From assembly GCA_029975295.1 (NCBI GenBank), contig JARKPK010000179.1, positions 1 through 37,923 on the forward strand: a stretch of 37,923 nucleotides of DNA, written 5' to 3'. Positions 10,901-28,386 of this stretch are shown in pieces. The position numbers and the translations under genes are program-made. How positions within the stretch are numbered: the first letter of the stretch is position 1; the number at the start of each line of letters is the position of its first letter. The notes beneath the pieces were generated by a model. It worked only from the letters and a program-made list of their open reading frames with translations, ran no database searches and was not told where the DNA came from. Source of the stretch: Thermoguttaceae bacterium. GTDB taxonomy: Bacteria > Planctomycetota > Planctomycetia > Pirellulales > Thermoguttaceae.

Positions 10901-12598
10901 TCAATGCACGGTGGTCGGCCCGCCCGCCGCAGTCGCCGGCGCGGCGGGCAGCTCGATGACAAACGAACAGCCGCCGCCGGTCCGGTCGCCCAGTTCGATC
11001 TTGCCGCCGTGTTCATGCACGATTTTTCGGCTGACGGCCAACCCGAGGCCGGTGCCGCGCACGCCCTTGGTGGAAAAGAACGGATTGAAGAGGTGGTCGC
11101 GGTGTTCCGGGGCGACGCCCGGGCCGTCGTCTTCAATCGTGATCCGGGCGATTCGCTCGGCGGGAAGATATTCCGTTCGCACGGCGACGCGGCCGCCACG
11201 ATCCCCTTCGCCGGCCGCGTCGATGGCGTTGGTGACGATGTTCAGCACCGCGCGATGAACGCCTTCAGCGTCGAAGACGCTTTCGGGCATCGACTCGTCG
11301 GGCGCATAGCTGAGCGCCACATTCCGTTCGGCGGCGCGCGCCTGCATCAACTCAACCACGTCGGCCACCGTGCGGTTCAGCTGGCCCGGCGACAGATCGG
11401 GCTCGCGCTCTTTGCTGAAGGTGAGCATGTCGAGCACCAGCGATGAAATCTTGTTCTGGTTCTTCTCGACGATCGTCCAGCCTTTGCGGACAATCGATTC
11501 GTCGTGCTCGTTCAAGCCCATTTCGATCAGGTAGCTGCCCCCGCGAATCCCTTGCAAAATGTTCTTGATGTGGTGCGAAAGCACGGCCACGGTTTGGCCC
11601 ACGGCCGCCAGCCGCTCGGCTTGCACCATGGCGGAGTAGTATCGCGTGTCTTCGACGGCCAAGGCGGCCTGATGCCCGATGGCCACCATCAGCTTCAGAT
11701 GGTCGCCGGTGAACTTGTTCTTGTGGCCTTTGAGAAGAACCTCCTCGGGCGGCGTCGAGGTGTCGATGTAGATCACGCCGACCATGTCGTATCGGCCCTG
11801 CATCGGCACGCAAATCGCTTCGCGCACGCCGGCCTGCACGATGCTCGCGCCGGGCTCCCAGCGCTGATCTTGCTTGGCGTCGCTGGTCAACACGCCCTCG
11901 CCCCGTTCCACCACGTAATCGAGTATCGTTCGGCTGATCGTAATCGTCTCGTCGGCGCCGGGGCGGGCGCGCGCGCGGCGGACCCGCGGCGCAAACTGCT
12001 TCGTCCGGGGATCGAGCAGCATGATGCAACCGCGGTCGGCCTCGACCCACTCGAAGATCAACTCCATGATCCGCTGCAAGAGCTGATCGATATCGAGCGT
12101 ATGGCTGACGGCCAACGCCGTCCGATACATCACCTGCAAGTTGCCGCGGGCCCGGGCCAGCCAGGCGTTTTCGGGCTTGTCGGCCGAAAAGTCGAGCAGC
12201 GCGCTGCCCTCCTTTTGCGTAACCGACCGCACGATTCGCGAGGCCTCCTGTTCGGTCGGAGCGTCGGCAATCCGGACGATGTCGGCCAACCGGTCGGCCG
12301 ACGGATCGAGCGCGCCGGTATAGAGCAGCAGCGTGCCGCCCACCTGAACCTGTTCGCCGCTGCGGAGCGCATGCTGCCGAATGCGCCGGCCGTTGACGTA
12401 GGTGCCGTTGGAACTGTTCAGATCCGAAATGACGTAGTCGCCCTGCTCGTCGCGGCGCAGTTCGGCATGATGCCGCGAAACCTCGCTATCGTGCAACTGC
12501 GCAAGGGCCGACGCGTCGCGTCCCAGTCGAACGACCGGATCGACCAGCTCGAACCGCATCCCCTGATCATTGCCGCGAATGACGAACAGCGATGGCAT
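10901..12598 (-). CDS. FHA-GAF sensor histidine kinase
   Basis: This 565-residue soluble histidine kinase has three parts. An FHA domain (about 3-95) carries LGRD, SRHH and NGTYVNG, the phosphothreonine-binding pattern. A GAF domain follows (about 168-316). The transmitter has the H box AVLSHHIKNILQ with H342 as likely phosphoacceptor, an N box near 453-457, DDGPGV (490-495) and GTGLGL (515-520). There are no membrane segments or signal peptide, so it should sense a cytoplasmic ligand or a phosphorylated protein. FHA domains suggest a link to Ser/Thr kinase signalling, common in planctomycetes. No response regulator is adjacent. I started at the ATG at 12598 because FHA similarity begins at once; the frame continues upstream to 12751 with basic, unrelated sequence. 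Confidence 0.92.
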   Translation of the reverse strand: MPSLFVIRGNDQGMRFELVDPVVRLGRDASALAQLHDSEVSRHHAELRRDEQGDYVISDLNSSNGTYVNGRRIRQHALRSGEQVQVGGTLLLYTGALDPSADRLADIVRIADAPTEQEASRIVRSVTQKEGSALLDFSADKPENAWLARARGNLQVMYRTALAVSHTLDIDQLLQRIMELIFEWVEADRGCIMLLDPRTKQFAPRVRRARARPGADETITISRTILDYVVERGEGVLTSDAKQDQRWEPGASIVQAGVREAICVPMQGRYDMVGVIYIDTSTPPEEVLLKGHKNKFTGDHLKLMVAIGHQAALAVEDTRYYSAMVQAERLAAVGQTVAVLSHHIKNILQGIRGGSYLIEMGLNEHDESIVRKGWTIVEKNQNKISSLVLDMLTFSKEREPDLSPGQLNRTVADVVELMQARAAERNVALSYAPDESMPESVFDAEGVHRAVLNIVTNAIDAAGEGDRGGRVAVRTEYLPAERIARITIEDDGPGVAPEHRDHLFNPFFSTKGVRGTGLGLAVSRKIVHEHGGKIELGDRTGGGCSFVIELPAAPATAAGGPTTVH

Positions 12599-13146
12599 GA
12601 GCGTAAGTGAACCAACCGCGCGCCGACAATTGCCCCGGCCCAACGGCCCGAAGACGACCGCGAACAACCGAAGACAACGCAACACAGCCCGATGAGCCAG
12701 CTTGCTTGATTGTACGAACCGGCGGCGCGCGACGGTAGATCCGCCCACCACTGCCGCCCTGGAGAAGTGTTGATTGAGCTCAAGTCAGGCAGGCGCAACT
12801 GCTACGCTTTACCCATTTTTCCCGAATACGAAGGTTCCGCGTATTCGTCAAGCGGGAGAGATCGGAGCTGCGCGGTTCGAAATGGTCCGATATCCCCCGC
12901 CGATAACGCGAAGCGGCCCAAGCCCGAGCAAGTGACGCTGTTGAGCCGTTTCGCTGAACCGGGGGACGGCATTTGCCCGTTTCGCGGACCTGCTCGGCCC
13001 GCTTCGGAAATCATCGCGCATGGCGCGGCGCGAACACGCCGATCAAGTGCCGTGGCGACCTAGCCTGGACATCAGGCGGGCAAGGCGCCGGCCTCCGCGG
13101 GGTCGCCGGTGGCGGGGTGATAGGAACGCAGCGACCGGCGATCGAC
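12599..13146. other. Intergenic region upstream of the FHA kinase
   Basis: These 548 bases lie between the sulfotransferase stop and the kinase start, both on the minus strand. I see no gene with family signal. The notable element is the inverted repeat at 12823-12847. The promoter of the kinase is expected here. Confidence 0.55.
12823..12847. promoter_or_regulatory. Perfect 8-bp inverted repeat, possible operator
   Basis: CGAATACG (12823-12830) and CGTATTCG (12840-12847) are perfect inverted copies around nine bases. They are unusually AT-containing for this GC-rich spacer. No T tract follows on either strand, so an operator fits better than a terminator. Confidence 0.35.
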
Positions 13147-14208
13147 TCAGCCTTCGTCATCGCCGGCAACTTCGTCTTCAGCGGCAACACGGTCGCGGTT
13201 GGCGGCGACCGAAACGCCGCTGCCTGCTGAACTCCGCGGATCGCCGTCCGGCAAGTAGCGATGCAGCCCGACGCGAGCCAGCGCCCGTTGCGTCTTCCGG
13301 TCGTAGCGGGCGCGTTGATCGTCGTCGAAGTGTTCGGTCCAGCCTCCTGCCTTTCCGCGCCGGATAAAGGCGCCGGGCGTCATCCCCTGTTCAAGCATGA
13401 ACTCGGTGGCGAAATCGAACTTCATTTCATACTTTTTCATGAAGGCGAAGCTCGAACGTTCGAGTATCCGCGGCATCTCGCTTTCGGGGATGTCGAGATC
13501 GCAGAACGCGATGATTCGCCGGATCGTTCCCTCCAGGTCGTTCACCAAGTCTTCGTAGAACAGGAAAAGCACATTGGGATTATCGCGGTGTTTCCACCAA
13601 TGCGCCACGTGATACCACCACGATCCCCAAACGACCCAGCCGCGCATGTAGTAGCGGAAGAAATCGGCGAACGAACCGCGATAGCGGAAGTGCGACTGAT
13701 AGAAGTGGTAGAACGAAACGGCCACGTCGCGGCCGTCGCGGGCGCAATAGATGAAGCGGCAGGCCCGCTTGGGAATCCAAATGTAGGGCAAGTGGCTCTT
13801 GAAGACGCGCGGCGACTTGAGTTTCTCGAAGTTGCGTTTATTCAGAGCGGCCCGTTCGAACCAGGGACAGACGTCGGCGATGTGGTCGAAATCCATCGAG
13901 CCGTCCGTGGTCAGTTGATACAGGATCATTTGCAGCCAGGTGGTGCCCGATCGAGGATAGGTCACCAGGAAAACATCGTCGCGGCGGGCAGTGTAGTCGA
14001 GGAACATCAGCCGCGCGTAGTCGATGGCCACTTGCAGCCCCCAGAAGATCCACGAGAGCAATCGGAGCTGGAATCCCACGATCCACAGTGCCCGCGATAC
14101 GATCCACCGCAACGGCGCAATTGCCCGCCACAGAGCCGCTCTTCTAAGCAGCGAGGGGGGGTAGGAACACTTCTTCGGCGTCGCGGCCGATGCCGCTTGG
14201 GTAGTCAT
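13147..14208 (-). CDS. PAPS-dependent sulfotransferase, last gene of the lipopeptide operon
   Basis: This 353-residue sulfotransferase should move a sulfonate group from PAPS to a hydroxyl or amine of the operon product. The 5'-phosphosulfate loop is TYPRSGTTWLQ (83-93), the likely catalytic His is H139 in RVFKSHLP, the 3'-phosphate site is CARDGRDVAVSFYH (155-168), and RRGKAGGWTEHF (283-294) matches the family RKG motif. About 75 residues precede the loop, rich in Trp, Leu, Ile and Arg (roughly 18-70), longer and more hydrophobic than in soluble family members. This suggests membrane contact or lipid substrate binding. The C-terminal tail is acidic. The start ATG overlaps the NRPS stop as ATGA, so the two are translationally coupled. 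The open frame extends upstream to 15090 only as an overlap with the NRPS gene. Confidence 0.92.
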   Translation of the reverse strand: MTTQAASAATPKKCSYPPSLLRRAALWRAIAPLRWIVSRALWIVGFQLRLLSWIFWGLQVAIDYARLMFLDYTARRDDVFLVTYPRSGTTWLQMILYQLTTDGSMDFDHIADVCPWFERAALNKRNFEKLKSPRVFKSHLPYIWIPKRACRFIYCARDGRDVAVSFYHFYQSHFRYRGSFADFFRYYMRGWVVWGSWWYHVAHWWKHRDNPNVLFLFYEDLVNDLEGTIRRIIAFCDLDIPESEMPRILERSSFAFMKKYEMKFDFATEFMLEQGMTPGAFIRRGKAGGWTEHFDDDQRARYDRKTQRALARVGLHRYLPDGDPRSSAGSGVSVAANRDRVAAEDEVAGDDEG

Positions 14209-17200
14209 CGCAAGCCTTTCGGTTGTTCGTCGGCAGATTGGGTAAGGGCTCGGGCCGGGTTGGGTGGCGACGGGCTGTCGCGGCCGACCCGCGCGAGGCA
14301 TTGGCGGAGCCGCTCGGCCAACACGGCAACGTGCGGTCGGCGAATCACGTCGAGATGTCCGCCGGGGATGCGATGCACCTCGACGCCGCCGCGGGCCCAT
14401 GCGCCCCAGCCCATGGCCGGATCGGCGGTGATGTCGAAGCCCTCGGGCTGCTCGTCGCCGACGAAAAGAGTGATCTTGCCCGGATACTCGCGCGGCCGAT
14501 GCTCCCACAAAGCCTTCAGGTTGGCTTTGAACACGTCGAACACCCGGCCGATCGCGTCGTCGCCCACTTCGGGCAACGCCACGCCCGCCGCGGCCGCACG
14601 GCTGCGGAAGTAGTCGAGATGCTCGCGCGGGGTCATCCGGCGCAATTGATCGAGCGTCATCTGTTCGTCGGGGAACATCGTTAGAATGATCGGCAGGAAG
14701 TCGTTTTCGGTGGCTTCGCGCTGCGGCCGGAGCGTGCCCGAGTCGATCAGGGCCAGCAGTCCGACATGCTCGCCCATCGCAATAAGCTGCTGTGCGAGCT
14801 CGAACGCCAGGTTGCCCCCCAGCGACCAGCCGCCCAGCAAATAAGGGCCGCGCGGTTGAACGCTGCGAACCGCAGCGGCGTAATGAGCGGCCATCTCGGC
14901 GGCGTTGGTGTGCGGCGGGAACAGCCCATCGAGGCCGACAGCTTGCAGACCATACACGGGCCGCTCGCCGGCCAGCGCCGCCGCCAACGCCTGGTAGCAA
15001 AACACCGTGCCGCCGGCCGGATGCACCAAGAACAGCGGATCGCCCGGGCCGCCCAATTGCAGAGGCACGAGCGACTGTTCCACCGGACATTGGTCGGGCC
15101 CGGCAAGCAGCCGGGCCAAATGCGCCACGGTAGGCCGCTGGAACAACGCCAACATCGGCAAGCGCCGCCCGCAGCGCTCCTCCAACAAGCTCATCATTCG
15201 CACAGCCAGCAGCGAGTGCCCACCGAGGGCGAAGAAGTCGTCTTCAGCGCCGATGGGGCTGACGCCCAACACCTGCCGCCAAACGTCGGCCACCACAGCC
15301 TCCTCGGCCGTGCGCGGAGCCACATAGGCGGCCGACCATCCGGGACGGGCGGTTCCCGGGGGCGGCAAGGCGCGCGCGTCCAACTTGCCCGAGGCCCCGC
15401 GCGGAAGCGAATCGACCACCACCACGGCCGAGGGGAGCATGTAGTCGGGCAACTGCGACTGGAGCCAACCGCGCAACCGGCCTTCGAGCAAAGCGGCCCG
15501 TTGCGCCGCGCCCGGATTGTTGGCGAAACGCCGCGGTTCCCAGGCGGCCCCGCCCCATTGTTGAAAGAACTGATCGAACGCCGCCGCGCCACTGCCCGGC
15601 CGCTGCCGATCTGTTGAGCCGGCGCGAGCCGCCTCCACCATGCCGCGATGTTCGCTCGGCAACGGAATGAATCGCCCGCGGCCGCCATGAGAGACCAAGC
15701 CCTTGCGCCGGGCCATTTGCCGCAGCGCGCGGCGCTGCGATCGGAGGTTGCGCCGGATGCGGCGCCGATCGGCCGCGATGCGCGCGCCTATCCGCCGCCG
15801 AAGGTTCGCCGCTGGTTCCCGCCCCGTTGCTGCCTGACGCCGCGAGTCGCCCGGTGTGTCCTCTGTCCGAGTGAAGATGATGTCGCAGCATTCGGGCCGA
15901 TCGCTCCGCGGCCAGTGGAACTCGACGTTCCATCCCAGGGCAAGCGCCCACTGGCGCAACCGATCGGGGCGCAATCGCTGGTCGCCGGCAACGCCCGCAG
16001 CCGCAGCGCGCAGTGCGCCGACATCGGCCGGGCCTCCGGGCTTCTGCGCCGATTGCCAGCAGTTCAACGGGCTCGCCAGCCGCAGGTTTGGCACATTGTT
16101 CACCCGAACGCCCCGTGACGCGCCCTCGGCGAGCAACGCGGCCAACGCCTCCCAACCGACAAATTCCGTCTCCTCGACCAACTCCGCGCCGATTGGGGAG
16201 CGGTCGAAATGGAGCATCACGTCGTAACGGTATTGCGTCAGTTCGTTATCGTCGCCGAACGACTTCAGCAATACGTCAACGCGTTTCAATCGCGGCATTC
16301 GGCCGGGCAGCAGAAGAAAGAGCACCGGGTGGACGCCCAACTCCTGGTCGCTCGAAAGCCGCCGACCGACGCGGTCGAGCAATTCGTCGCGGACCATCGT
16401 ATCGGCCGCCCGAGCCATCTCGGCCGCGCAGGCGAACTCGCCGGCAACCGCTTGGTTGCGAACGTCGGTCACATAGATCGTTCCGCCGCGTTCCAGCCGA
16501 TCGGCAGCCGATTCGAGCCATTCGAGCAGATACTCGACATCGGGAAAATACGCCGCCAACGAGTTCAGCACAATCAGGTCGAATCGCTCCCGCGGCAACG
16601 AATCCCAGCGGTGCGGCTCGCAGCAAACAAGCGCAACCCGCTCGGCCTCTGCCGGACGGCGGGCCAGCGCGCTCTCGAGCCAGGAGATCGTTTCCGGACA
16701 GAAGTCGCTCGCCGTGTACGACCGGCACCGTTGAACCAACGGAAAGAGCAGCAGCCCCGTCTTGCATCCCATATCGAGCAGATGCCGCGGCCGCCGGGCC
16801 TGCAATCGGGCAAGGTGCTCGTCGCGCCAACACCGCATCTCCTGATGAGTGAACACCCGCCCGCTGATCGCGCCCACCCAGCCGGCTGGATGAAACGTGG
16901 GATCGCTGGGCGGGGGCGTTTGCCGCAAGGCGGCGTCGAACACTTCGCGCCAATGCGCGAAGCGCTCGGCAATCAGTTCACGCCGCTGCCGTTCGCCGTT
17001 GTCGCCTGCGGCGGCCACATAGGCCACCAAACGCGGGCCGCCCGGCGGCTCGTCGCGCACCACAACGGCTGCATCGCGCACGTCGGGGTGGCGGCGGAGC
17101 AAAGCGGCCACTTCTTCCGGCTCGACGCGAAAGCCGCGGAGCTTCACCTGCCCGTCCAACCGCCCAAGGAACTCCAGTTGGCCGTCCCGACGCCAGCGCC

Positions 17201-20096
17201 CCAAGTCGCCCGTGCGGTACGACCGCGCCCCGCCTCTGCGGAACCGATCGGGCCGAAACCGTTCGCTGTCGGAGCAGGCATCGCCAAGGTAGCCTCGGGC
17301 GACTTGCGGCCCACCGATGACGATCTCGCCGGGGAACCCCAAGGGCAACAGTTGCCCGCACGAATCGCATATGTAGATGGCCACTTCGGGCAGCGGGCGC
17401 CCCAACGGCGGTTTCTCGCGCGGCCCGCCGCGGCAGGGTTGCCCGCCTTCGCCTTGCGCGGCAGGCAGCGCATCAGCCGAAGTCCGCTCAGCCGAAGTCC
17501 GCTCGGTCGAAGGCAGCAAGGCCATCGTCGCGCCAATAGCGGCTTCCGTCGGGCCGTAGGCGTTGAATAAACGCCGCCCGCGCGCCCACCGGACGGCCAC
17601 GTCGGCAGGCAACGCCTCGCCGGCCGAAACCACGGTGCGCAACTGCGGCACGGCGTCGGGTTCCAGCGCGCGAAGCATTGAAGGCGTCAGTTGCGCCAGT
17701 GTGATCTCGGCCTGGCGGGCGATCTCGGTCCAGACCTCGGGATTCATGGGCAGGCCCGGGTTCGACGGCAGCACCAACGTGGCGCCCGAGGCCAGCGCAT
17801 TGAACATCTCGGCGAGCGATCCGTCGAACGCGGTCGAAAAGAACTGCAACACGCGGTCGCCGGGCCCGACGCCGAGAACCCCGTTCTGCCCCCGAACAAA
17901 CGCCGCCGCCTGTCCGTGCTCGACCACAACCCCTTTCGGCATTCCCGTCGTGCCCGAGGTGAAGATGCAATAGGCCGCCCGTTGCGGTGACGGAGGGGGC
18001 AAGAGGCCGGGCGATTCCATCCCCAAAGCGATCAATCGCTCAACCGTCGTGATCTCGCAACCGCTCGCCGACAGCACCGCGGCCGCATCCGTCGAAACGG
18101 CCTCCGAAGCCGAGGCGGTCGCGCGGCACGACGAAGCGGCGGGAACAACCGCCCGACGGCAGCCGGCCAGCGCGACGATTCGCGCCAGACGCTCGGGCGG
18201 CGATTGCGGATCCAAAGGCATGAAGAGGCCGCCCATCTGAAACAACGCGAGCATGACGGCCACCAGTTCGGGCGACCGCGGCAGCGCCACTGCCACCGGT
18301 TCTTCCGGGCCAACCCCCCAGCGGCTCAGTCCGTGGGCGCACTGCCCAGTCCATTGCGCCAAGGCGGCGTAGGTCCATCGCCGCCCCGCGAATTCCAAGG
18401 CGATGCGGTCGGGCCCAAGAACCGCCTGCCGCTCGAACAACTCATGCAAGGTCGCTGGTGGATCGAAGGCGGAAGAGCGGTCATCGCGAGAAGAGCGATC
18501 ATCGTCCAAAGAGCGATCGAAGGTAGATGATCGATCGAAAGCGGCCGGTTCATCGACGAGCGAAGGTCGTGCCCCGGCAGTATTGCGTGAACCGCTTTGC
18601 GCTGCGAGCAAGGCTTCGCCGCAGCCAAGCCGCAACAGTTCTCCGCTGGTGCGCGGATCAACCAGCGGCAATTCGCCGACGGGCATTTCGGGCCGTTCGA
18701 TCGCGGCCGCTAAGAATACTTGCAAGGCATCGGTCAACCGCGCAATCGTGTCGCGGTGGAAAAGATCTGTCGCATACTCTGCAAAGCCTTCAATGCCGTC
18801 CCGCTGGAAGAAATGCAGCGTCAAATCGTGGCGCGCGGTTTGCGGGTCGACGTCGTAAGGTTCGACCGACCATGGGCCGTCCTGCGGCCACTCGATCGGA
18901 GCGTTCTGCCATACGACCGCCATGTTGAACAGCGGGACTTCGATGCCCGTGCGCCGCGGGGCGGCCGCCTCGATGATCCGCTCCAACGGCGCCGCTTGAT
19001 GCTCTTGCACGCCGAGCATGACGCCGTGTTCGGCCGCGACGGCCGCGCGAAAACCCGCGCCAACGTCGGTCGCCCGCCGCACCGGCAACGCATTGACGAA
19101 GAAGCCCACCAAGTCACGGACGTCGGGATGCAAGCGGTTGGCCAAGGCCGCGCCGACGATCAGATCTTCTTGTCGGCACACGCGGGCCAGCACCGTCCGA
19201 ACAGCGGCCATCGCCACGACGAAAGCCGAGGTGCGGCATTCAGCCGCGAATCGCGCAACGGCTTCGCTCATCGCGCGGCTCCAAACAAACCGGACCCGCC
19301 CGCCCGACCACGAAGGAGCGGCCGGACGCGCGAAGTCGCACGGCAAGCCGGGCGGCTCCGGGGCTGCGGCCAGCGATTGGCGCCAATAGTCCAGGTCGGC
19401 CTTCCATGCGCCGGAAGCCTCGGCCTCGCGCTGCCAGGCGGCGTAGTCGGCGTAACGGATCGGCAGCGGCGGAAGGCTTGCAGGCCGGGCCTGCGCTTTC
19501 GCTGCATAGAGTAACACCAAATCGCGCAACGCCACCCCCAGCGACCAGCCGTCGGCCGCAATGTGATGCATGACGATCAACGCAACGTGATCATCGTCGG
19601 CCAAGCGAAACAGCGCGGTGCGGAACAGCGACGACCCTTCGAGATCAAAGCCCTTTCGCGCCTCGGCCGTGAGCAGTGAATCCAGCGTCGCCCAGCGTCG
19701 CTCCGGCGGTTCGGCCGAAAGATCCCAAAGCAATCGCGCCGCACTGACTGGAGGATGGACAACCCGGCGGGGCATGCCGCCTTCATTGCGGTACCCCGTT
19801 CGCAGGCTTTCGTGACGCGCAACCAATGCGTCGATGGCATCAAAGAACCACTCCGAGCGCAATGGCCCGCGCACCCGCGCCGCGGCCGAAAGAAGCTGCA
19901 CGGGATGCCCCGGCGCCGTTTGCTCGAGGAACCACAATCGCTGTTCCGCGGGCGACAAGAGAGCGGCTTGGCTGTCGGTGCATCGGGGAATGCGCTGCTG
20001 GTCGGCCCGGGCACGAGCGCGGCGGAGCAGGGCTTCTTCCAACAGGGCCCGCTTCGCCGGCGACACTTCGTTGATCCGAGACTCCCAACCTTGCAT
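14205..20096 (-). CDS. Single-module NRPS: C-A(MT)-PCP-TE
   Basis: This 1963-residue synthetase adds one amino acid to an acyl chain and releases the product. The condensation domain (about 40-480) has HHIAADGW at 177-184. The adenylation domain starts near 545, with TSGTTGMPKG near 713, NAYGPTE near 845 and YRTGDLG near 960. A methyltransferase of about 400 residues is inserted after the A8 motif (about 1035-1430), with LLDMGCKTG at 1106-1114. The A10 Lys is K1571. The carrier Ser is S1628 (GGHSLL), the thioesterase Ser S1758 (GWSLGG) and its His H1914. Position-by-position alignment to PheA gives the specificity residues D-G-A-Q-V-A-A-I-G-K, which I cannot assign. The ATG at 20096 is preferred over GTG at 20123. 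The gene lies 87 bases after the FAAL-ACP gene. Confidence 0.94.
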   Translation of the reverse strand: MQGWESRINEVSPAKRALLEEALLRRARARADQQRIPRCTDSQAALLSPAEQRLWFLEQTAPGHPVQLLSAAARVRGPLRSEWFFDAIDALVARHESLRTGYRNEGGMPRRVVHPPVSAARLLWDLSAEPPERRWATLDSLLTAEARKGFDLEGSSLFRTALFRLADDDHVALIVMHHIAADGWSLGVALRDLVLLYAAKAQARPASLPPLPIRYADYAAWQREAEASGAWKADLDYWRQSLAAAPEPPGLPCDFARPAAPSWSGGRVRFVWSRAMSEAVARFAAECRTSAFVVAMAAVRTVLARVCRQEDLIVGAALANRLHPDVRDLVGFFVNALPVRRATDVGAGFRAAVAAEHGVMLGVQEHQAAPLERIIEAAAPRRTGIEVPLFNMAVVWQNAPIEWPQDGPWSVEPYDVDPQTARHDLTLHFFQRDGIEGFAEYATDLFHRDTIARLTDALQVFLAAAIERPEMPVGELPLVDPRTSGELLRLGCGEALLAAQSGSRNTAGARPSLVDEPAAFDRSSTFDRSLDDDRSSRDDRSSAFDPPATLHELFERQAVLGPDRIALEFAGRRWTYAALAQWTGQCAHGLSRWGVGPEEPVAVALPRSPELVAVMLALFQMGGLFMPLDPQSPPERLARIVALAGCRRAVVPAASSCRATASASEAVSTDAAAVLSASGCEITTVERLIALGMESPGLLPPPSPQRAAYCIFTSGTTGMPKGVVVEHGQAAAFVRGQNGVLGVGPGDRVLQFFSTAFDGSLAEMFNALASGATLVLPSNPGLPMNPEVWTEIARQAEITLAQLTPSMLRALEPDAVPQLRTVVSAGEALPADVAVRWARGRRLFNAYGPTEAAIGATMALLPSTERTSAERTSADALPAAQGEGGQPCRGGPREKPPLGRPLPEVAIYICDSCGQLLPLGFPGEIVIGGPQVARGYLGDACSDSERFRPDRFRRGGARSYRTGDLGRWRRDGQLEFLGRLDGQVKLRGFRVEPEEVAALLRRHPDVRDAAVVVRDEPPGGPRLVAYVAAAGDNGERQRRELIAERFAHWREVFDAALRQTPPPSDPTFHPAGWVGAISGRVFTHQEMRCWRDEHLARLQARRPRHLLDMGCKTGLLLFPLVQRCRSYTASDFCPETISWLESALARRPAEAERVALVCCEPHRWDSLPRERFDLIVLNSLAAYFPDVEYLLEWLESAADRLERGGTIYVTDVRNQAVAGEFACAAEMARAADTMVRDELLDRVGRRLSSDQELGVHPVLFLLLPGRMPRLKRVDVLLKSFGDDNELTQYRYDVMLHFDRSPIGAELVEETEFVGWEALAALLAEGASRGVRVNNVPNLRLASPLNCWQSAQKPGGPADVGALRAAAAGVAGDQRLRPDRLRQWALALGWNVEFHWPRSDRPECCDIIFTRTEDTPGDSRRQAATGREPAANLRRRIGARIAADRRRIRRNLRSQRRALRQMARRKGLVSHGGRGRFIPLPSEHRGMVEAARAGSTDRQRPGSGAAAFDQFFQQWGGAAWEPRRFANNPGAAQRAALLEGRLRGWLQSQLPDYMLPSAVVVVDSLPRGASGKLDARALPPPGTARPGWSAAYVAPRTAEEAVVADVWRQVLGVSPIGAEDDFFALGGHSLLAVRMMSLLEERCGRRLPMLALFQRPTVAHLARLLAGPDQCPVEQSLVPLQLGGPGDPLFLVHPAGGTVFCYQALAAALAGERPVYGLQAVGLDGLFPPHTNAAEMAAHYAAAVRSVQPRGPYLLGGWSLGGNLAFELAQQLIAMGEHVGLLALIDSGTLRPQREATENDFLPIILTMFPDEQMTLDQLRRMTPREHLDYFRSRAAAAGVALPEVGDDAIGRVFDVFKANLKALWEHRPREYPGKITLFVGDEQPEGFDITADPAMGWGAWARGGVEVHRIPGGHLDVIRRPHVAVLAERLRQCLARVGRDSPSPPNPARALTQSADEQPKGLR
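18462..18539 (-). repeat. DRSS-type low-complexity repeat in the NRPS linker
   Basis: Between the C and A domains the protein reads as imperfect copies of FDRSS, DDRSS and RDDRSS (about residues 520-545). At DNA level, units around GAGCGATC recur on the plus strand. A second, shorter repeat (ERTSAERTSAD) lies at 17472-17504. Both are consistent with short tandem expansions in flexible linkers. Confidence 0.6.
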
Positions 20097-20183
20097 GACG
20101 ACTATCGATCCCGAGCAAACCACCGCGATCGCCGGGCAAAGTGCGCCGTTGCCCGGCGGCCGACCGCGTTCGGCCCAAGCCGA

Positions 20184-22346
20184 TCAACGCGTCTCGGGCG
20201 GCCAAGCCGAAGCTTGGCGCCGCTGCGCCTCTTCTTCGCTGATCGACTCAATTTCGGCAAGCACATCGGCCAAAGACAACTGTGGGTCGGCCCCCTGATA
20301 ACGCCGAATCAGGTTGCACAGCGCCGCGATGGTCGGGTCGCCGAACAACTGCGAGAGCGAATAATCGGGCGGCAGCAACGGGCGCAACCGCATATACAAT
20401 TCGACGGCCGAAAGCGAGTTTCCGCCAAGCTCGAAGAAGTTGTCGTCCAACGCCGCCGAATCCACACGCAGCACTTCGCACCAGTGCCGCGCGATCTCGA
20501 TCTCCAGCGGCGACTGCGGCATGGGACGGTCGCTTGCGGCGCGTTGATCCAGCGACGCGGCGCGCCATTGCGCGACAACGGGCAGTTGACCGCCGAGAAA
20601 ACTACTGCGGCAAACGGCGCGGGCGATCTTGCCGCTGTTCGTTCGCGGCAGCGCCCCGCCCGGGATCAGCACCACCGCCCCGGGCGCCAGAAAGAACTCG
20701 GCGGCAAGCTCGCGGCGAATCGCCGCCATCACCTGCTCGGGATCGAAGCCAGGCCCGCGACGCACCTCGTGAACGATCACCACGCGTTCGGCCCCGCCCA
20801 TCTCGCAGGCGAAGGCCGCGCCGCCGCCGTGGCGAAGCGACGAATGGCCGCGGGCGACGGCCGCCTCGATGTCGTGCGGGTAGTAGTTCCGCCCCCGAAT
20901 GACGATCATCTCCTTGATCCGCCCGACGACGAACAACTCGCCCTCGTGAAAAAATCCCAGGTCGCCGGTGCGGAGAAACGGCCCGTCGCCGTCCGCGGTA
21001 AAGGCATCGAAGGTCGCCCGGCTTTCTTGGGGACGATTCCAGTAGCCCAGCGCCACGTTAGGGCTTTGCACCCATATTTCGCCCACCGTGTCGGCCCCGC
21101 AGCGGCTCAGGGACGAGGGATCGACAATCTCGACTGTCTGCCCCGCCCACGGCCGTCCGCAGCCCACCAGTCGCCAAGCGTCGGGGGCCGTTTCGGCAGC
21201 GGGGATAGCGCGGCCTTCGGCCAAATGCCTCCGCGAAAAACAGCGTTCTACCCGCACTTCGAACCACCGGCCCGAAGTGACATTAAGCACCGCTTCGGCC
21301 AGGCCATAGGCCGGCAGAAAGGCCTCGGGCCGAAAACCGGCGACTGCGAACTTGGCGGCAAACTCGGCCAACGCGCCGCTGCGAACTTGCTCGGCCCCGA
21401 CAACGGCGACGCGCCAACTGCTCAAGTCGATTCCATCGAGTTCTTGCGGACGCACCTTGCGGGTGCAAAGCTCGTAGGCGAAGTTCGGCGCCCCGCTGGT
21501 TGTGCCGCGGTAGCGCGAAATTGCGGAAAGCCAACGCAGCGGCCGCTGCACGAACGCGGCCGACGGCATGAAGATCGTTTCTCGCCCGGCATAGACGGGA
21601 AGCAGCATCCCGCCGATCAGGCCGAAATCGTGGTGCGGCGGCAGCCAGGTAACGCCTACCGCGTTCGGCACGTCCTCGCGGCACATTGCCGCCACGCTGC
21701 TAAGCACGTTGCGGTGCGAAAGCAGCACGCCCCGCGGCGTGCCGGTCGAGCCCGACGTGTACTGCAAGACGGCCGGGCTGTCGTCTTCAATCGGCGGCGG
21801 CTGCCAGCGGGAGCCGTCGGCGGCAAACAAGGCGGCCATCTCAACCGCCTCAATCGAGCGGGCCGAGGCCCCCATCGCTTGCAACACCACCTGTCGTTCG
21901 TTGTCCGACGCCGTTAGGGCCGCGGTGGGCAAGGCGTCGGCCACAATCGCCTGCAAACGGGGCAAAGTGCGGCGCAGCCGCAAGGGATCGGGCGGAACCA
22001 CCGGCACGGCTGTGGCGCCCGCCAACAAACAACCCCATAGAGCGGTCACGAAATCGAGGCCCGAGTCGAACACCAACAGCACCCGCTGCCCGAAGGCGCC
22101 GCGCTGCTGCAAACCCGCCGCAACCGCCCGCGCTCGGCGAAACAGCTCTCCGTAGGTCAAACAGCCGCTTTCCGTCTCGCCGTCGGCCAGGAATCGAAAG
22201 GCCGTCGCGTTGGGCATCACCCGATGCTGCCGCAGCAAGGCGTCGACCAGCGTGGTCGAGTCGCCGGCAATCGAATCGGTCGCATGATCGGCGCCCGCAG
22301 CAGCTTCAACAGAATCCACGCCGGCGATGGGTATGCCCGAGTGCAT
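20184..22346 (-). CDS. Fatty-acyl-AMP ligase fused to an acyl carrier protein (FAAL-ACP)
   Basis: This 720-residue protein should activate a free fatty acid as acyl-AMP and load it onto its own carrier domain to prime the NRPS. The ATP loop YTSGSTGTPRGV is at 196-207, WLPPHHDFGLIGG at 234-246, the FAAL-type NFAYELCTRKV segment at 288-298, YGLAE at 347-351, RTGDLG at 459-464, and the A10 Lys at K573 (TNSGKIAR). The carrier domain (about 610-685) has its phosphopantetheine Ser at S644 in ELGGNSLSA. The FAAL insertion motif separates it from acyl-CoA ligases. I chose the ATG at 22346. The frame also allows a GTG at 22481, but that adds 45 basic residues and lies within the candidate promoter. 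It is first in the operon with the NRPS and sulfotransferase. Confidence 0.93.
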   Translation of the reverse strand: MHSGIPIAGVDSVEAAAGADHATDSIAGDSTTLVDALLRQHRVMPNATAFRFLADGETESGCLTYGELFRRARAVAAGLQQRGAFGQRVLLVFDSGLDFVTALWGCLLAGATAVPVVPPDPLRLRRTLPRLQAIVADALPTAALTASDNERQVVLQAMGASARSIEAVEMAALFAADGSRWQPPPIEDDSPAVLQYTSGSTGTPRGVLLSHRNVLSSVAAMCREDVPNAVGVTWLPPHHDFGLIGGMLLPVYAGRETIFMPSAAFVQRPLRWLSAISRYRGTTSGAPNFAYELCTRKVRPQELDGIDLSSWRVAVVGAEQVRSGALAEFAAKFAVAGFRPEAFLPAYGLAEAVLNVTSGRWFEVRVERCFSRRHLAEGRAIPAAETAPDAWRLVGCGRPWAGQTVEIVDPSSLSRCGADTVGEIWVQSPNVALGYWNRPQESRATFDAFTADGDGPFLRTGDLGFFHEGELFVVGRIKEMIVIRGRNYYPHDIEAAVARGHSSLRHGGGAAFACEMGGAERVVIVHEVRRGPGFDPEQVMAAIRRELAAEFFLAPGAVVLIPGGALPRTNSGKIARAVCRSSFLGGQLPVVAQWRAASLDQRAASDRPMPQSPLEIEIARHWCEVLRVDSAALDDNFFELGGNSLSAVELYMRLRPLLPPDYSLSQLFGDPTIAALCNLIRRYQGADPQLSLADVLAEIESISEEEAQRRQASAWPPETR

Positions 22347-24567: not shown

Positions 24568-25629
24568 TTAGCCGGTTCGGCGCGAAGCACCCGGACCGCA
24601 AATGCTTTCTTCGAGGCGTTCGAACTCCTCGAAACTGCGGAAGTGAATCACCAGCTTGCCGCGTCCGCGGGCGTTGTGGCTGAGTTGCACTTTCATCCCC
24701 AATGCGGCGCGGAATCGCTGCTCCAGCGCGGCCAGTTGCTCGTTGCGCGGTTTCACCGCGGCGGCCGCCCGACGCCCGGTCCGATCGACCACGCTCAACG
24801 GCTCGGCGTCCAGCGCGTCGATGCGTTCCTGCACCAACGCCTCGGTGGCGCGAACGCTGAGCGTCTCTTGCTGGATGCGGCGGCAAAAGGCCACCTGTTC
24901 GTTTTCATCTCCCAACGGCAGCAAGGCGCGGGCATGGCCCTGCGTGATCTTTCCGGCGCGGATCGCCTGCTGAACCTCGTCGGGCAATTCCAGCAACCGG
25001 ATCAGGTTGGAAATGGTCGAGCGATCGATCTTCAACCGCCCGGCAAGCTCTTCCTGGGTGCTTTCGTACCGTTCCAGGTACTGTTGGAACGACATCGCCT
25101 TTTCCAGCGGATCGAGGTCCTTTCGGTGCAAGTTCTCGATGATCGCCAGTTCGGCCGATTCGCGCGGGTCGGCTTCGACGATCTGCACGGGCACCTCGGT
25201 CCAATGAAGCTCCCTGGCCGCCCGAAGACGCCGCTCGCCGGCCACCAGCTCGTAGCCGGCATCGACGCATCGAACCACGATCGGCTGCAACAGTCCGTGA
25301 GCGGCAATGCTCTCGGCCAACTGGGCCAGTTCCAGCGGATCGAATACCTTGCGCGGCTGCGAGGGATTGTGCGCGATCTTGTCGATCGGCACGCGGCGCA
25401 ACGTGTCGGTCGATTCGCCCACCGGCCCTGCGCCCCGGCCGCCGCTCTCCGGGTGATCGAATTCGCCCGTCTGCTGCGGCAGTCGCCCGCCTTCGCTCGG
25501 CGCGACCGCGTCGCCCGAGGGGGGCGCGGCCGATGCAATCGGAGCGGCACTCGGCACGTTCCCGGCGGGACGGGCAATCCCGCCCAATAGGGCTTCCAAT
25601 CCACGGCCCAAACGGCGTTCTCTAGTCAC
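24568..25629 (-). CDS. parB: Chromosome partitioning protein ParB
   Basis: This 353-residue ParB/Spo0J protein binds parS and spreads as a CTP-dependent clamp to mark the origin region. The first residues RLGRGLEALLGG match the family N-terminus that touches ParA. A Pro/Ala/Gly-rich linker of about 50 residues follows, then the ParB core with IAHNPSQPRKVFD near 90, GERRLRAAR near 132 (the CTP-binding motif) and IIENLHRKDLDPLEKA near 164. The helix-turn-helix contains EELAGRLKIDRSTISNLIRL in two blocks near 190-210. The C-terminal part should dimerise. The gene begins with GTG and overlaps the parA stop by eight bases, so the pair is coupled. Two parS sites lie about 0.45 kb upstream of parA. 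Confidence 0.95.
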   Translation of the reverse strand: MTRERRLGRGLEALLGGIARPAGNVPSAAPIASAAPPSGDAVAPSEGGRLPQQTGEFDHPESGGRGAGPVGESTDTLRRVPIDKIAHNPSQPRKVFDPLELAQLAESIAAHGLLQPIVVRCVDAGYELVAGERRLRAARELHWTEVPVQIVEADPRESAELAIIENLHRKDLDPLEKAMSFQQYLERYESTQEELAGRLKIDRSTISNLIRLLELPDEVQQAIRAGKITQGHARALLPLGDENEQVAFCRRIQQETLSVRATEALVQERIDALDAEPLSVVDRTGRRAAAAVKPRNEQLAALEQRFRAALGMKVQLSHNARGRGKLVIHFRSFEEFERLEESICGPGASRRTG

Positions 25630-26368
25630 GATCGAGTACCTCCATGCACAGTTCCGCGTAGGCCCGGCTGCCGCGGGCGCGCGGGTTGTAGTCGATCACC
25701 GGCAACCCGTGGCTCGGGGCTTCGGAGACGGCCACGTCGCGCGGGATGGCGGTTTGGAAAACGATCTCTCCAAAGAATTCACGGACCTCTTGATCCACTT
25801 CGTGCGTCAGTTCGAGGCGGTGGTCGTACATCGTCAAGAGGATGCCGCCGAACTGGAGTTGGTGAGCGTCGTGCAAGATGACGTCGCGAATCACCTCGAT
25901 CATCTGCGTCAGCCCTTCCATGGCGAAATACTCGCACTGGATCGGCATCAGCACCTCCGTCGAGCCGGCCAAGGCCGTGCGGGTCAATGGCCCAACCGAG
26001 GGCGGGCAATCGATCAACACGAAGTCGTAGCGATTCAGCCCGAGTTCCAAATAGTCGCGCAGGCGATTGGTGGGCGAATTCTGGTCGCGCGCCAGCAGTT
26101 CGATATCGCGAAAACTGCGGGTGCCCGGCAACAGATCCAGCCCGGCAACGCCGGTGGCCAAAGCCCCCTCGGCCAAAGGCACGCCTGTCACCAGCGGGTG
26201 ATTTGCCGTCGGGGCTTGCCCCAACCCGGTCGTGGCGTTGCATTGCGGGTCGAGATCGACCAGCAGCACTTTCATCCCGGCCATGGCCAGCGCAGCCGAG
26301 AGGTTGATCGCAGTGGTTGTCTTCCCCACCCCGCCCTTCTGGTTGGCCACGCAAAGAACCCGACCCAT
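25622..26368 (-). CDS. parA: Chromosome partitioning ATPase ParA (Soj)
   Basis: This 248-residue Walker ATPase binds the nucleoid as an ATP dimer and is driven off by ParB, moving replicated origins apart. The deviant Walker A is NQKGGVGKTTTA (9-20), followed by VLLVDLDPQCNATTG near 34-48 (A' motif) and IDCPPSVGPLT near 118. Length matches the short chromosomal Soj type, without the N-terminal helix-turn-helix found in P1-type plasmid ParA. The ATG is preceded by AGAAGG at about five bases. It overlaps parB at its end. With parS nearby, this looks like the chromosomal segregation locus rather than a plasmid system. Confidence 0.96.
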   Translation of the reverse strand: MGRVLCVANQKGGVGKTTTAINLSAALAMAGMKVLLVDLDPQCNATTGLGQAPTANHPLVTGVPLAEGALATGVAGLDLLPGTRSFRDIELLARDQNSPTNRLRDYLELGLNRYDFVLIDCPPSVGPLTRTALAGSTEVLMPIQCEYFAMEGLTQMIEVIRDVILHDAHQLQFGGILLTMYDHRLELTHEVDQEVREFFGEIVFQTAIPRDVAVSEAPSHGLPVIDYNPRARGSRAYAELCMEVLDRD

Positions 26369-26800
26369 GACGCCTTCTTCCAGCTTTTATGCTCGCGCGG
26401 CAAACCGGCATTACATCGGCGAACAATGGTTGGTTCGCCTGTGCCGCCGACGGCCTCGTGCGGCTGTTCGCGCCTTGCGCGCGGGTCGGACACGCCGGCT
26501 CGCAATTGCCCCGGCAGTCCGCTCGACGTTGCGGCGGGATTGTATCAATCGGGCTTGTTGCGAGGAAATGGCAGTTTTCGGCCCAGGCCCAAAATGCCGA
26601 ATCGGTCAGCCCCCAGGCAAGCGACTTCGATGCCCCAAGACCGGCCGCCCCTTGAGCGGCCCGGTTGCCCCGGGGCGCCACGCAGAAGGCGGCTTGCAAT
26701 GGGGCGCAGATCGCCGAAATCGGCTTCCCCGGCAACCAGTTCGCGGCCCCGGGAAAAAACCGGCGAATTCAACGGGCAACGAGGGCCGACCGCAAAGCTC

Positions 26801-26816
26801 CGTTTCACGTGAAACA
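26801..26816. promoter_or_regulatory. parS: parS site 1
   Basis: CGTTTCACGTGAAACA matches the bacterial parS consensus TGTTTCACGTGAAACA at 15 of 16 positions. The central 14 bases are a perfect palindrome. This is the ParB loading site. Confidence 0.93.
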
Positions 26817-26898
26817 AGCCTGCGCACATTGCCCACAACTTGGCCCCAGGCGCGAACGGCGCATATCTCCAGCGCCGCCCACACGCCCCAGTTGGCAA

Positions 26899-26914
26899 TG
26901 TTTCACGTGAAACG
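26899..26914. promoter_or_regulatory. parS: parS site 2
   Basis: TGTTTCACGTGAAACG matches the parS consensus at 15 of 16 positions, mismatched at the opposite end from site 1. It lies 98 bases from site 1, centre to centre, both upstream of parA. Confidence 0.93.
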
Positions 26915-27066
26915 CCCCCGGGCATTGACGGGCGCGGATTGGAATTGCAGCCGAACGGCGCTAAGAACCCCAGTGAATCCGTGGTGCGTTGCACGGCGGC
27001 AATCGCCCCCCGAGGCGCGTCGCAGGTGCATTCTGAGGGCGGCCCGGCAATGCCGACAGCGCCGAA

Positions 27067-28386
27067 TTACTCCAGCGGGTTGAACACCAGCCCGGTGAGC
27101 AGTTTTGGGTAGAAATAGGTGCTCTTGGCGGGCATTCGCTCGCCCGACATGCTGATCTGGCGAACATGTTCCACTGTTGCCGGCATCACCAGGGCAGCCA
27201 GCGGGAAGTCGCCGTCGCGCAGCCCCTGCTGCACTTCATCAATCAAATGGACATAGCCGGGCCGAGGCAGTTCCGCGCCGCCGGAAAGCAGATCGTCGAT
27301 CACCAACCGATGCAACAAGGCCACGCCGAGCGCCTGCCACTGGGGCGAATGGTCGGCCGCAAGCTCGGCCATCCGAGCTCGCCCCGCTTCGGTCAACCGA
27401 GCGACGGTCCACCGCCCGTCCGCCGCGGTAAACAAGGCCAGCGTGTCTTGGCGATCTTCCAAGACCATCTCGTCCCAAAGCGACGAGGCCCGTTCGACGC
27501 CCGCGCCGCCGGCAGCCGTGTCGAAGAACGGCCGCAACTTCGACGCCAACTGTTCCGAGTTCAGACGCAGTTGCCCGCCGGGCCCGGCCCGAAACAGCCG
27601 ATGCGTGGGCATAATCGACAGCCCGGGGTCTTCCATCGAAACGCACATCATCAGGGTGTAGTTGGCCGGATGATTCGGCGAAAGAAACCCGCTGTCGTAC
27701 ACCTGATCGCGATAGTTGCACGCCGTTTCGTAGCGGTGGTGGCCATCGGCAATGAACAGCGGCTTGGGCCCCATGATGCCAGCCACCTGCGAAATGACTC
27801 CCACGTCGGTCATCGGCCAGAGGCGATGCTCGACGCCGAGGTGATCGTGCGCCACGATCGGGGTTTGCCCGGCCACAGCGGCTTCCAAGACACTCTGAGC
27901 CTCATTTTGCGGATCGGGGTACAGTCCGAAGATCGGGCTCAAGTTGGCCTTGGTGACAACCGTGAGCATCAGCCGATCGAGCTTCGGTCCGGGCATGGTT
28001 TCCTCGTGCGGAAACACCAGCCCTTCGCCAAAACGCGACAACCGCATCCGGGCCAAGAAGCCCCGGCGCAGGCAGGCGCGGCCCTCGATCTCAAATTGTT
28101 GATGATAGACGTAGATCGCCGGATCGGCCTCGGTGAACAACACACCTTCGCTTTGCCATTGTCGATAGAACTTGGCCGCCCGAGTGTATCGGTTGTTGGC
28201 TTCGTCGTCGTCGCCCGGCTCGATCCGATTCAAATCAATGCGAATCACGTTGCACGGGTGCTTGCGATACAGCCCGTCTTGCAACTCCGAACCGATGACA
28301 TCGTACGGCGGAGCCACCACGTCGCTCAAACTGCCGACGTGACCGAGGTTGTAGCGAACGGCGCGAAAGGCTTGAATTTCCGGCAT
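27067..28386 (-). CDS. DUF1015 family protein
   Basis: This 439-residue protein is a full-length DUF1015 member, as shown by the N-terminal FRAVRYN, VVAPPYDVIG near 24-33 and the later VYHQQFEIEG, FPHEETMPGPK and FIADGHHRYETA blocks, the last being the most conserved part of the family. No signal peptide or membrane segment is visible. The biochemical role of most members is not established; some archaeal and bacterial relatives have been connected to serine metabolism and free-serine phosphorylation. Charged and His residues in ADGHHRYE look like a catalytic or metal site, which is inference. The ATG at 28386 lacks a clear ribosome-binding site. It lies in the same direction as parAB but about 700 bases before them, so is probably separately transcribed. 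Confidence 0.88.
   Translation of the reverse strand: MPEIQAFRAVRYNLGHVGSLSDVVAPPYDVIGSELQDGLYRKHPCNVIRIDLNRIEPGDDDEANNRYTRAAKFYRQWQSEGVLFTEADPAIYVYHQQFEIEGRACLRRGFLARMRLSRFGEGLVFPHEETMPGPKLDRLMLTVVTKANLSPIFGLYPDPQNEAQSVLEAAVAGQTPIVAHDHLGVEHRLWPMTDVGVISQVAGIMGPKPLFIADGHHRYETACNYRDQVYDSGFLSPNHPANYTLMMCVSMEDPGLSIMPTHRLFRAGPGGQLRLNSEQLASKLRPFFDTAAGGAGVERASSLWDEMVLEDRQDTLALFTAADGRWTVARLTEAGRARMAELAADHSPQWQALGVALLHRLVIDDLLSGGAELPRPGYVHLIDEVQQGLRDGDFPLAALVMPATVEHVRQISMSGERMPAKSTYFYPKLLTGLVFNPLE

What the first reader, a model, noticed from the sequence alone, without database searches (positions are those of the whole stretch)
13147..22346. Compact FAAL-NRPS-sulfotransferase operon: predicted sulfated lipo-amino acid
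Seen: a FAAL fused to an ACP, one NRPS module (C-A-MT-PCP-TE), and a sulfotransferase with an ATGA overlap, all one strand. Known: FAALs activate free fatty acids for carrier loading, and the C domain would join the acyl chain to one amino acid. The TE then releases the product. Inference: a fatty-acylated, perhaps methylated, sulfated single amino acid, possibly a membrane or surface lipid. I do not know a described planctomycete pathway of exactly this minimal form.
Basis: partly seen in the sequence, partly recalled or inferred. Interest (0 to 1): 0.8.

Follow-up and report, generated by a model that had tools for sequence, protein, structure and literature searches.

The report
Gene trio for sulfated lipo-amino acid
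Three adjacent bacterial genes look like a very small assembly line that joins a fatty acid to one amino acid, possibly an aromatic one, and then adds a sulfate group; the trio recurs in related bacteria, but its product has not been seen.

Summary
In detail: one minus-strand operon of FAAL-ACP (20184-22346), a single C-A(MT)-PCP-TE NRPS (14205-20096) and a SULT-type sulfotransferase (13147-14208) with an ATGA overlap. The trio is contiguous in 4 genomes of 2 genera (window included); none of 15 window neighbour genes matched in the 2-8 kb searched beside the other three. ST orthologues occur in 6 of 119 family genomes (the same 6 of 396 sampled in the order). Seven family genomes are known to carry an MT-bearing NRPS of this kind, and 6 of them have the ST; but in 2 of those 6 the ST is unlinked, and the seventh (81% complete) shows none. 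Six of the seven share the pocket DGAQ[V/I]AAIG; it keeps 4 of 9 residues of the TycA Phe pocket, so an aromatic residue, best guess tyrosine, is a tentative prediction. Methylation is doubtful: those six MT domains carry Lys for the middle Gly of the SAM loop, while three relatives with other pockets read GCGTG. PPTase and APS kinase genes are in the genome. Best reading: a sulfated N-acyl amino acid, perhaps aromatic; sulfation of this product, membrane role and substrate are inferred. New variant of a known kind (minimal FAAL-NRPS).

The parts
20184..22346 (-). FAAL-ACP didomain protein, 720 aa (FAAL about 20571-22253, ACP about 20307-20495)
   Evidence: Pfam and NCBIfam, solved relatives, coordinates
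14205..20096 (-). single-module NRPS C-A(MT)-PCP-TE, 1963 aa from ATG; ORF extends to a GTG at 20123
18636..19970 (-). condensation domain, HHIAADG motif
   Evidence: PF00668 4.7e-82, motif
16977..18437 (-). adenylation core, pocket DGAQVAAIG(K)
15837..16976 (-). methyltransferase domain inserted between A8 and A10; SAM loop DMGCKTG, Lys for Gly
15327..15494 (-). end of the adenylation domain (A10 Lys, GKLD)
15105..15296 (-). peptidyl carrier domain, GGHSL
14325..15038 (-). type I thioesterase, GWSLG and GGHL
13147..14208 (-). SULT-type sulfotransferase, 353 aa, with a hydrophobic N-terminal extension
14205..14208 (-). ATGA overlap of NRPS stop and inferred sulfotransferase start
   Evidence: the same overlap is in G071

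Best explanation
The operon makes a sulfated N-acyl amino acid. The FAAL adenylates a free fatty acid and loads its fused ACP; the C domain joins the acyl chain to one amino acid activated by the A domain, possibly aromatic (about 0.6) and at best guess tyrosine (about 0.35); the TE releases the N-acyl amino acid; the sulfotransferase, whose hydrophobic N-terminus may hold it at the membrane, moves sulfate from PAPS to a hydroxyl, the phenol if the residue is tyrosine. N-methylation is possible but doubtful. Shown: gene order, domains, motifs, recurrence of the trio, shared pocket, altered SAM loop, PPTase and APS kinase in the genome. Inferred: substrate, order of steps, that the NRPS product is what is sulfated, sulfation site, location and role.
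For: Domains and motifs. Contiguous FAAL-NRPS-ST in G000, G030, G070 and G071; none of 15 window neighbour genes matched at E<=1e-10 in the 2-8 kb fetched on either side in the last three. ST in 6 of 119 family genomes at E<=1e-60. Known carriers of an MT-bearing NRPS of this kind in the family: G000, G001, G016, G030, G060, G070, G071; 6 of these 7 have the ST. The 6 ST genomes are also all among the 10 of 119 with a PCP-TE match at E<=1e-60: hypergeometric 6e-8 by genome, 4e-4 by genus, kinship not corrected; G001 counts there through another NRPS (C681, 45%), because its own C18 gene is cut, and without G001 the figure is 7e-7. Pocket DGAQ[V/I]AAIG in the window and five relatives. Aligned to TycA, 4 of 9 pocket residues are kept (D, A, A, I), with A->G, W->A, T->Q, I->V, C->G; the pocket positions, the Phe specificity of TycA and the reading of W->A as room for a ring substituent are recalled. 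ST keeps the PAPS loop and the His and is nearest to SULTs, among them phenol and tyrosine-ester ones. PPTase family: two matches; APS kinase: one.
Against: No product known. ST is unlinked in G001 and G060, and the G060 MT-bearing partner is a two-module system with pocket DGAKCAAVG. G016 has the NRPS but no ST at E<=1e-20, though its contig ends 78 bases after the NRPS frame and the genome is 81% complete. In G070 the ST follows the NRPS by 1.2 kb. The aromatic reading is thin: 5 of 9 pocket residues differ from TycA, the best solved match of the A core is another, 'dimodular' NRPS with a different pocket (8G97), and the whole A domain is nearest to LgrA; the code string is in no held paper. 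SULTs act on many substrates, and the best match is an estrogen sulfotransferase. In G030, G070 and G071 the C-terminal RKG..G.W stretch reads RKGQPGEGQ or RKGRPGEGQ. The best-described minimal relative, acinetin 505, is reported as a lipopeptide with more than one residue (passages). The DGAQ grouping is weakly supported (64/74) and the window A domain is on a long branch. N-terminal hydropathy is borderline (1.04-1.72).
Confidence: 0.5

Rival explanations
1. The sulfate goes on a hydroxyl of the fatty acyl chain rather than on the amino acid, and the residue is Phe- or Trp-like or not aromatic.
For: Four of nine pocket residues match the Phe pocket of TycA, and the ST has a hydrophobic N-terminal extension. 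Hydroxy fatty acids are common in such lipids (recalled).
Against: No hydroxylase among the three proteins. The enlarged pocket may suit a substituted ring (inference).
Confidence: 0.2
2. The sulfotransferase works on another cell molecule; the FAAL-NRPS makes an unsulfated N-acyl amino acid, and the two are merely co-inherited.
For: ST is unlinked in 2 of 6 carriers and not found in G016; in G070 it lies 1.2 kb from the NRPS.
Against: Trio together in two genera with different neighbours in the stretches searched; ATGA overlap in G000 and G071; all 6 ST carriers in the family have an MT-bearing NRPS of this kind.
Confidence: 0.18
3. The single module works more than once, or other steps add units, giving a small lipopeptide rather than a single amino acid.
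For: Relatives in G060, G059 and G056 have two modules. [quoted passage not shown]
Against: One A and one C domain, with the acyl donor on a separate ACP; G007 and G060 C18 have single-module fused forms.
Confidence: 0.17
4. The MT domain is active and the product is N-methylated (compatible with the best explanation).
For: Best solved match is 5WMM, 6.2e-39 (recalled as the backbone N-methylating TioS domain); the domain is present in the window and five relatives.
Against: Lys for Gly in the SAM loop in those six, GCGTG in G060, G059 and G046; G056 fell out of that comparison.
Confidence: 0.35

Closest known systems
Acinetobacter A1S_0112-0118 operon (acinetin 505)
   Same: An ACP and a four-domain NRPS with TE, whose solved relatives 4ZXH/4ZXI match this NRPS (passages of PMC5376624). 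That A1S_0112 is a FAAL-type enzyme and the order C-A-PCP-TE are recalled.
   Different: Separate ACP, an acyl-CoA dehydrogenase, glycine as preferred substrate; reported product a 505-Da lipopeptide with Gly and Cys-Gly moieties; no MT or ST in the passages seen.
Stieleriacines and other N-acyl tyrosines
   Same: N-acyl aromatic amino acids in Planctomycetota (passages of PMC12479983 and PMC12078418).
   Different: Attributed to N-acyl amino acid synthases; the word sulfotransferase does not occur in the main text of either paper.
Fused single-module FAAL-NRPSs of this bacterial family (G007, G060 C18)
   Same: FAAL-ACP-C-A-PCP-TE, one module.
   Different: One protein, pocket DGSTCVGIG, no MT, no ST in the stretches fetched.
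Cyanobacterial olefin synthase
   Same: FAAL, ACP, sulfotransferase and thioesterase in one pathway (passages of PMC11837247).
   Different: PKS module and an ST-TE unit leading to loss of sulfate and an alkene; here no PKS domain in the three proteins and a separate ST gene after the TE.
Interrupted adenylation domain 5WMM (recalled as TioS)
   Same: Methyltransferase next to the A8 region; nearest solved match.
   Different: Lys in the SAM loop here; 5WMM reads eigvgsg.

Membership tests
FAAL didomain starter | FAAL-type AMP ligase fused to a carrier domain | tested here: met
   NCBIfam FAAL models match below their curated cut-offs
FAAL didomain starter | FAAL-specific insertion that disfavours CoA use (recalled) | not tested
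   the insertion was not mapped
Minimal FAAL-NRPS (acinetin type) | FAAL, ACP and a single C-A-PCP-TE module | tested here: met
   the MT insertion and the ST are additions
Minimal FAAL-NRPS (acinetin type) | N-acylated amino acid or short lipopeptide product | not testable with these tools
   needs chemistry
NRPS backbone N-methyltransferase | MT between A8 and A10, nearest to 5WMM | tested here: met
NRPS backbone N-methyltransferase | intact Gly-rich SAM loop | tested here: not met
   GCKTG in the window, GCK[T/A]G in five relatives, GCGTG in G060, G059, G046
PAPS-dependent sulfotransferase (SULT) | PF00685 with PAPS loop and catalytic His | tested here: met
   the loop reads YPRSGTTW where the aligned SULTs have Lys
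Olefin synthase | PKS module and an ST-TE unit | tested here: not met
   no PKS domain in the three proteins
[quoted passage not shown]
   none among the three proteins in Pfam or the 25 NCBIfam rows shown; the rest of the genome was not searched for it

The most novel reading that the evidence does not exclude
The trio makes an O-sulfated N-acyl tyrosine lipid, an anionic aromatic lipo-amino acid made by an NRPS route independent of the known N-acyl tyrosine synthases, with an MT domain that has lost methylation and survives as a structural insert.
Probability: 0.2. Interest if true: 0.7.

Novelty: new variant of a known kind. Interest (0 to 1): 0.5.

Why it matters
A self-contained three-gene route to a sulfated lipo-amino acid would add a lipid class to bacteria whose small molecules are little known, and would show an NRPS doing work attributed elsewhere in Planctomycetota to N-acyl amino acid synthases (passages). 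A 2024 review states that no aromatic amino acids had been found in bacterial aminolipids, though their N-acyl forms appear common (passage of PMC11631085). The shared Lys in the methyltransferase loop gives a direct test of whether an NRPS tailoring domain has been retained without its activity.

Tried and rejected
Olefin-synthase-like loss of sulfate: rejected, no PKS domain and ST is a separate gene. Chance ORFs: rejected by conservation. N-acyl amino acid synthase: none among the three proteins, genome not searched.

One search (A-MT query) found 4 of 119 and missed G030, G070 and G071, which carry the genes, so it is an undercount; I used the PCP-TE query and direct reading of loci instead. 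The genome-contig scan gave one distant relative, a Saprospiraceae MAG at 32%. The sigma-70-type promoter scan found none, and the terminator scan fewer than its shuffles (6 against a mean of 11.8). Code string search: no paper. One neighbour-gene match was seen, Gfo/Idh at 29% on the G001 contig with the unlinked ST. The first tree script stopped on a missing row name; the second ran. The first MT motif script failed after its first line; its repeat dropped G056, where the A8 motif was not found. PMC8406957 and PMC7794033, which held three or four of my search words, were opened in passages: a cyanobacterial P450/sulfotransferase cluster without a neighbouring carrier protein, and RiPP clusters, neither of this form. 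No structure prediction was run. On rechecking I lowered the best explanation from 0.55 to 0.5, tyrosine from 0.4 to 0.35, aromatic from 0.65 to 0.6 and the novel case from 0.25 to 0.2, and raised two rivals slightly, because the pocket keeps only 4 of 9 TycA residues, the best A-core match is not TycA, and acinetin 505 has more than one residue.

Full report
What is there. The window is contig C62 of a 5.01 Mb genome rated 99.99% complete. On the minus strand lie a FAAL-ACP protein (20184-22346), an NRPS (14205-20096) and a sulfotransferase (13147-14208); the last two overlap in ATGA at 14205-14208 and the first two are 87 bases apart. Pfam gives AMP-binding and PP-binding for the first, Condensation, AMP-binding, methyltransferase, PP-binding and Thioesterase for the second, and Sulfotransfer_1 for the third. 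FAAL models of NCBIfam match the first below their curated cut-offs, and its solved relatives include FadD23, FadD32 and FadD28. Expected motifs were found in C, A, PCP, TE, FAAL, ACP and ST. It is the only strong condensation-domain gene in the genome; a weaker one lies on C44.

Is it a unit? In G030, G070 and G071 (one genus) the same three genes follow each other, with FAAL 53-54%, TE 64-66% and ST 60-63% identical, and lower identity in C (38-40%) and A-MT (35-42%). None of 15 window neighbour genes matched at E<=1e-10 in the 1.9-7.8 kb fetched on either side of these. G071 repeats the ATGA overlap; G030 has a gap of 15 bases; G070 has 1.2 kb between NRPS and ST. ST orthologues at E<=1e-60 occur in 6 of 119 genomes of the family and in the same 6 of 396 sampled in the order. 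All 6 have an MT-bearing NRPS of this kind (window; G030; G070, G071; G001; G060); G016 has it without a detected ST. A PCP-TE query at E<=1e-60 marks 10 of 119, including the 6: 6e-8 by genome, 4e-4 by genus, without correction for kinship. That set is loose: G036 and G064 match at 41-42%, and G001 counts through another NRPS at 45%; without G001 the figure is 7e-7.

Against the unit. In G001 the ST lies on another contig after a PQQ-propeller gene, while FAAL and NRPS are on C18, whose end cuts the NRPS. In G060 the ST lies beside an altronate dehydratase-type gene, near a contig end, and the NRPS relatives are a two-module system on C9 and a fused single module on C18. G016's contig ends 78 bases after the NRPS frame. 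G007, G036 and G064 have a PCP-TE match, other pockets and no ST at E<=1e-60.

Amino acid. Nine pocket residues read from the alignment are DGAQVAAIG in the window, G030, G070, G071 and G016, and DGAQIAAIG in G001. G016 and G001 are cut by contig ends, so their single-module form is not certain. Other relatives differ: DGAKCAAVG (G060), DGSKLAGVG (G059), DACTIVGIG (G056), DAEHLGAIT (G046), DGSTCVGIG (G007 and G060 C18). Alignment to TycA keeps 4 of 9 and shows A->G, W->A, T->Q, I->V and C->G. The best solved match of this stretch is however 8G97, with a different pocket, and the whole A domain is nearest to LgrA. I read the pocket as possibly aromatic with room for a ring substituent, tyrosine at about 0.35. 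In a tree of 18 A domains the DGAQ set is one group at weak support (64/74), inside a strongly supported set (99/99) with the second modules of G060 and G059 and the fused modules.

Methylation. The MT lies between A8 and A10 and is nearest to 5WMM. Its SAM loop reads GCKTG; the five DGAQ relatives also have Lys there, while G060, G059 and G046 read GCGTG; G056 fell out of the comparison. The domain is kept but may be inactive or changed.

Sulfation. The ST has the PAPS loop, with Arg where aligned SULTs have Lys, the His and an RRGKAGGW stretch; that stretch reads RKGQPGEGQ or RKGRPGEGQ in the three G030-type relatives. It is nearest to cytosolic SULTs but has a longer N-terminus, hydrophobic and rich in Trp and Arg, with a maximum mean hydropathy over 19 residues of 1.04-1.72 in the six. 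That may suit work at a membrane but is borderline. An APS kinase match and two PPTase-family matches are in the genome.

What is known. Passages of PMC5376624 describe the A1S_0112-0118 operon, with an ACP and a four-domain NRPS that prefers glycine; its reported product has more than one residue. Passages of PMC12479983 and PMC12078418 describe N-acyl tyrosines of Planctomycetota, the first tying them to N-acyl amino acid synthases. Passages of PMC11837247 give the FAAL-PKS-ST-TE olefin route. The listings of searches, and the passages of PMC8406957 and PMC7794033, showed no described FAAL-NRPS-sulfotransferase trio; the library lacks most subscription journals.

Verdict. A real three-gene unit that recurs in a second genus; most likely a sulfated N-acyl amino acid, possibly aromatic; methylation doubtful; product and role unproven.

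Noticed in passing
L058 (G060 C18) and L023 (G007 C10): Fused FAAL-ACP-C-A-PCP-TE frames of 2136 and 2155 codons with pocket DGSTCVGIG, no MT and no ST in the stretches fetched: a second minimal lipo-amino acid synthetase in the family.
   Followed up: partly
L021 (G059), L043 (G060 C9), L025 (G056): FAAL-started two-module NRPSs whose first A domain has a DI[LC]Q.GV[VI]W pocket.
   Followed up: partly
window 24568-28386: ParB, ParA and DUF1015 genes close to the operon, so it sits near core genes.
   Followed up: no
window 29871-31466: Protein with nine YTV stretches (PF07639, 1.2e-99), which I recall as a planctomycete family.
   Followed up: no
window 10901-12751: FHA-GAF-ATPase (histidine-kinase-like) gene on the same strand about 0.4 kb downstream of the operon; no match in the stretches fetched around the relatives.
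   Followed up: partly
L035 6772-10008 (G001 C292): A protein joining a methyltransferase-like domain to PQQ propeller repeats just before the unlinked sulfotransferase.
   Followed up: no
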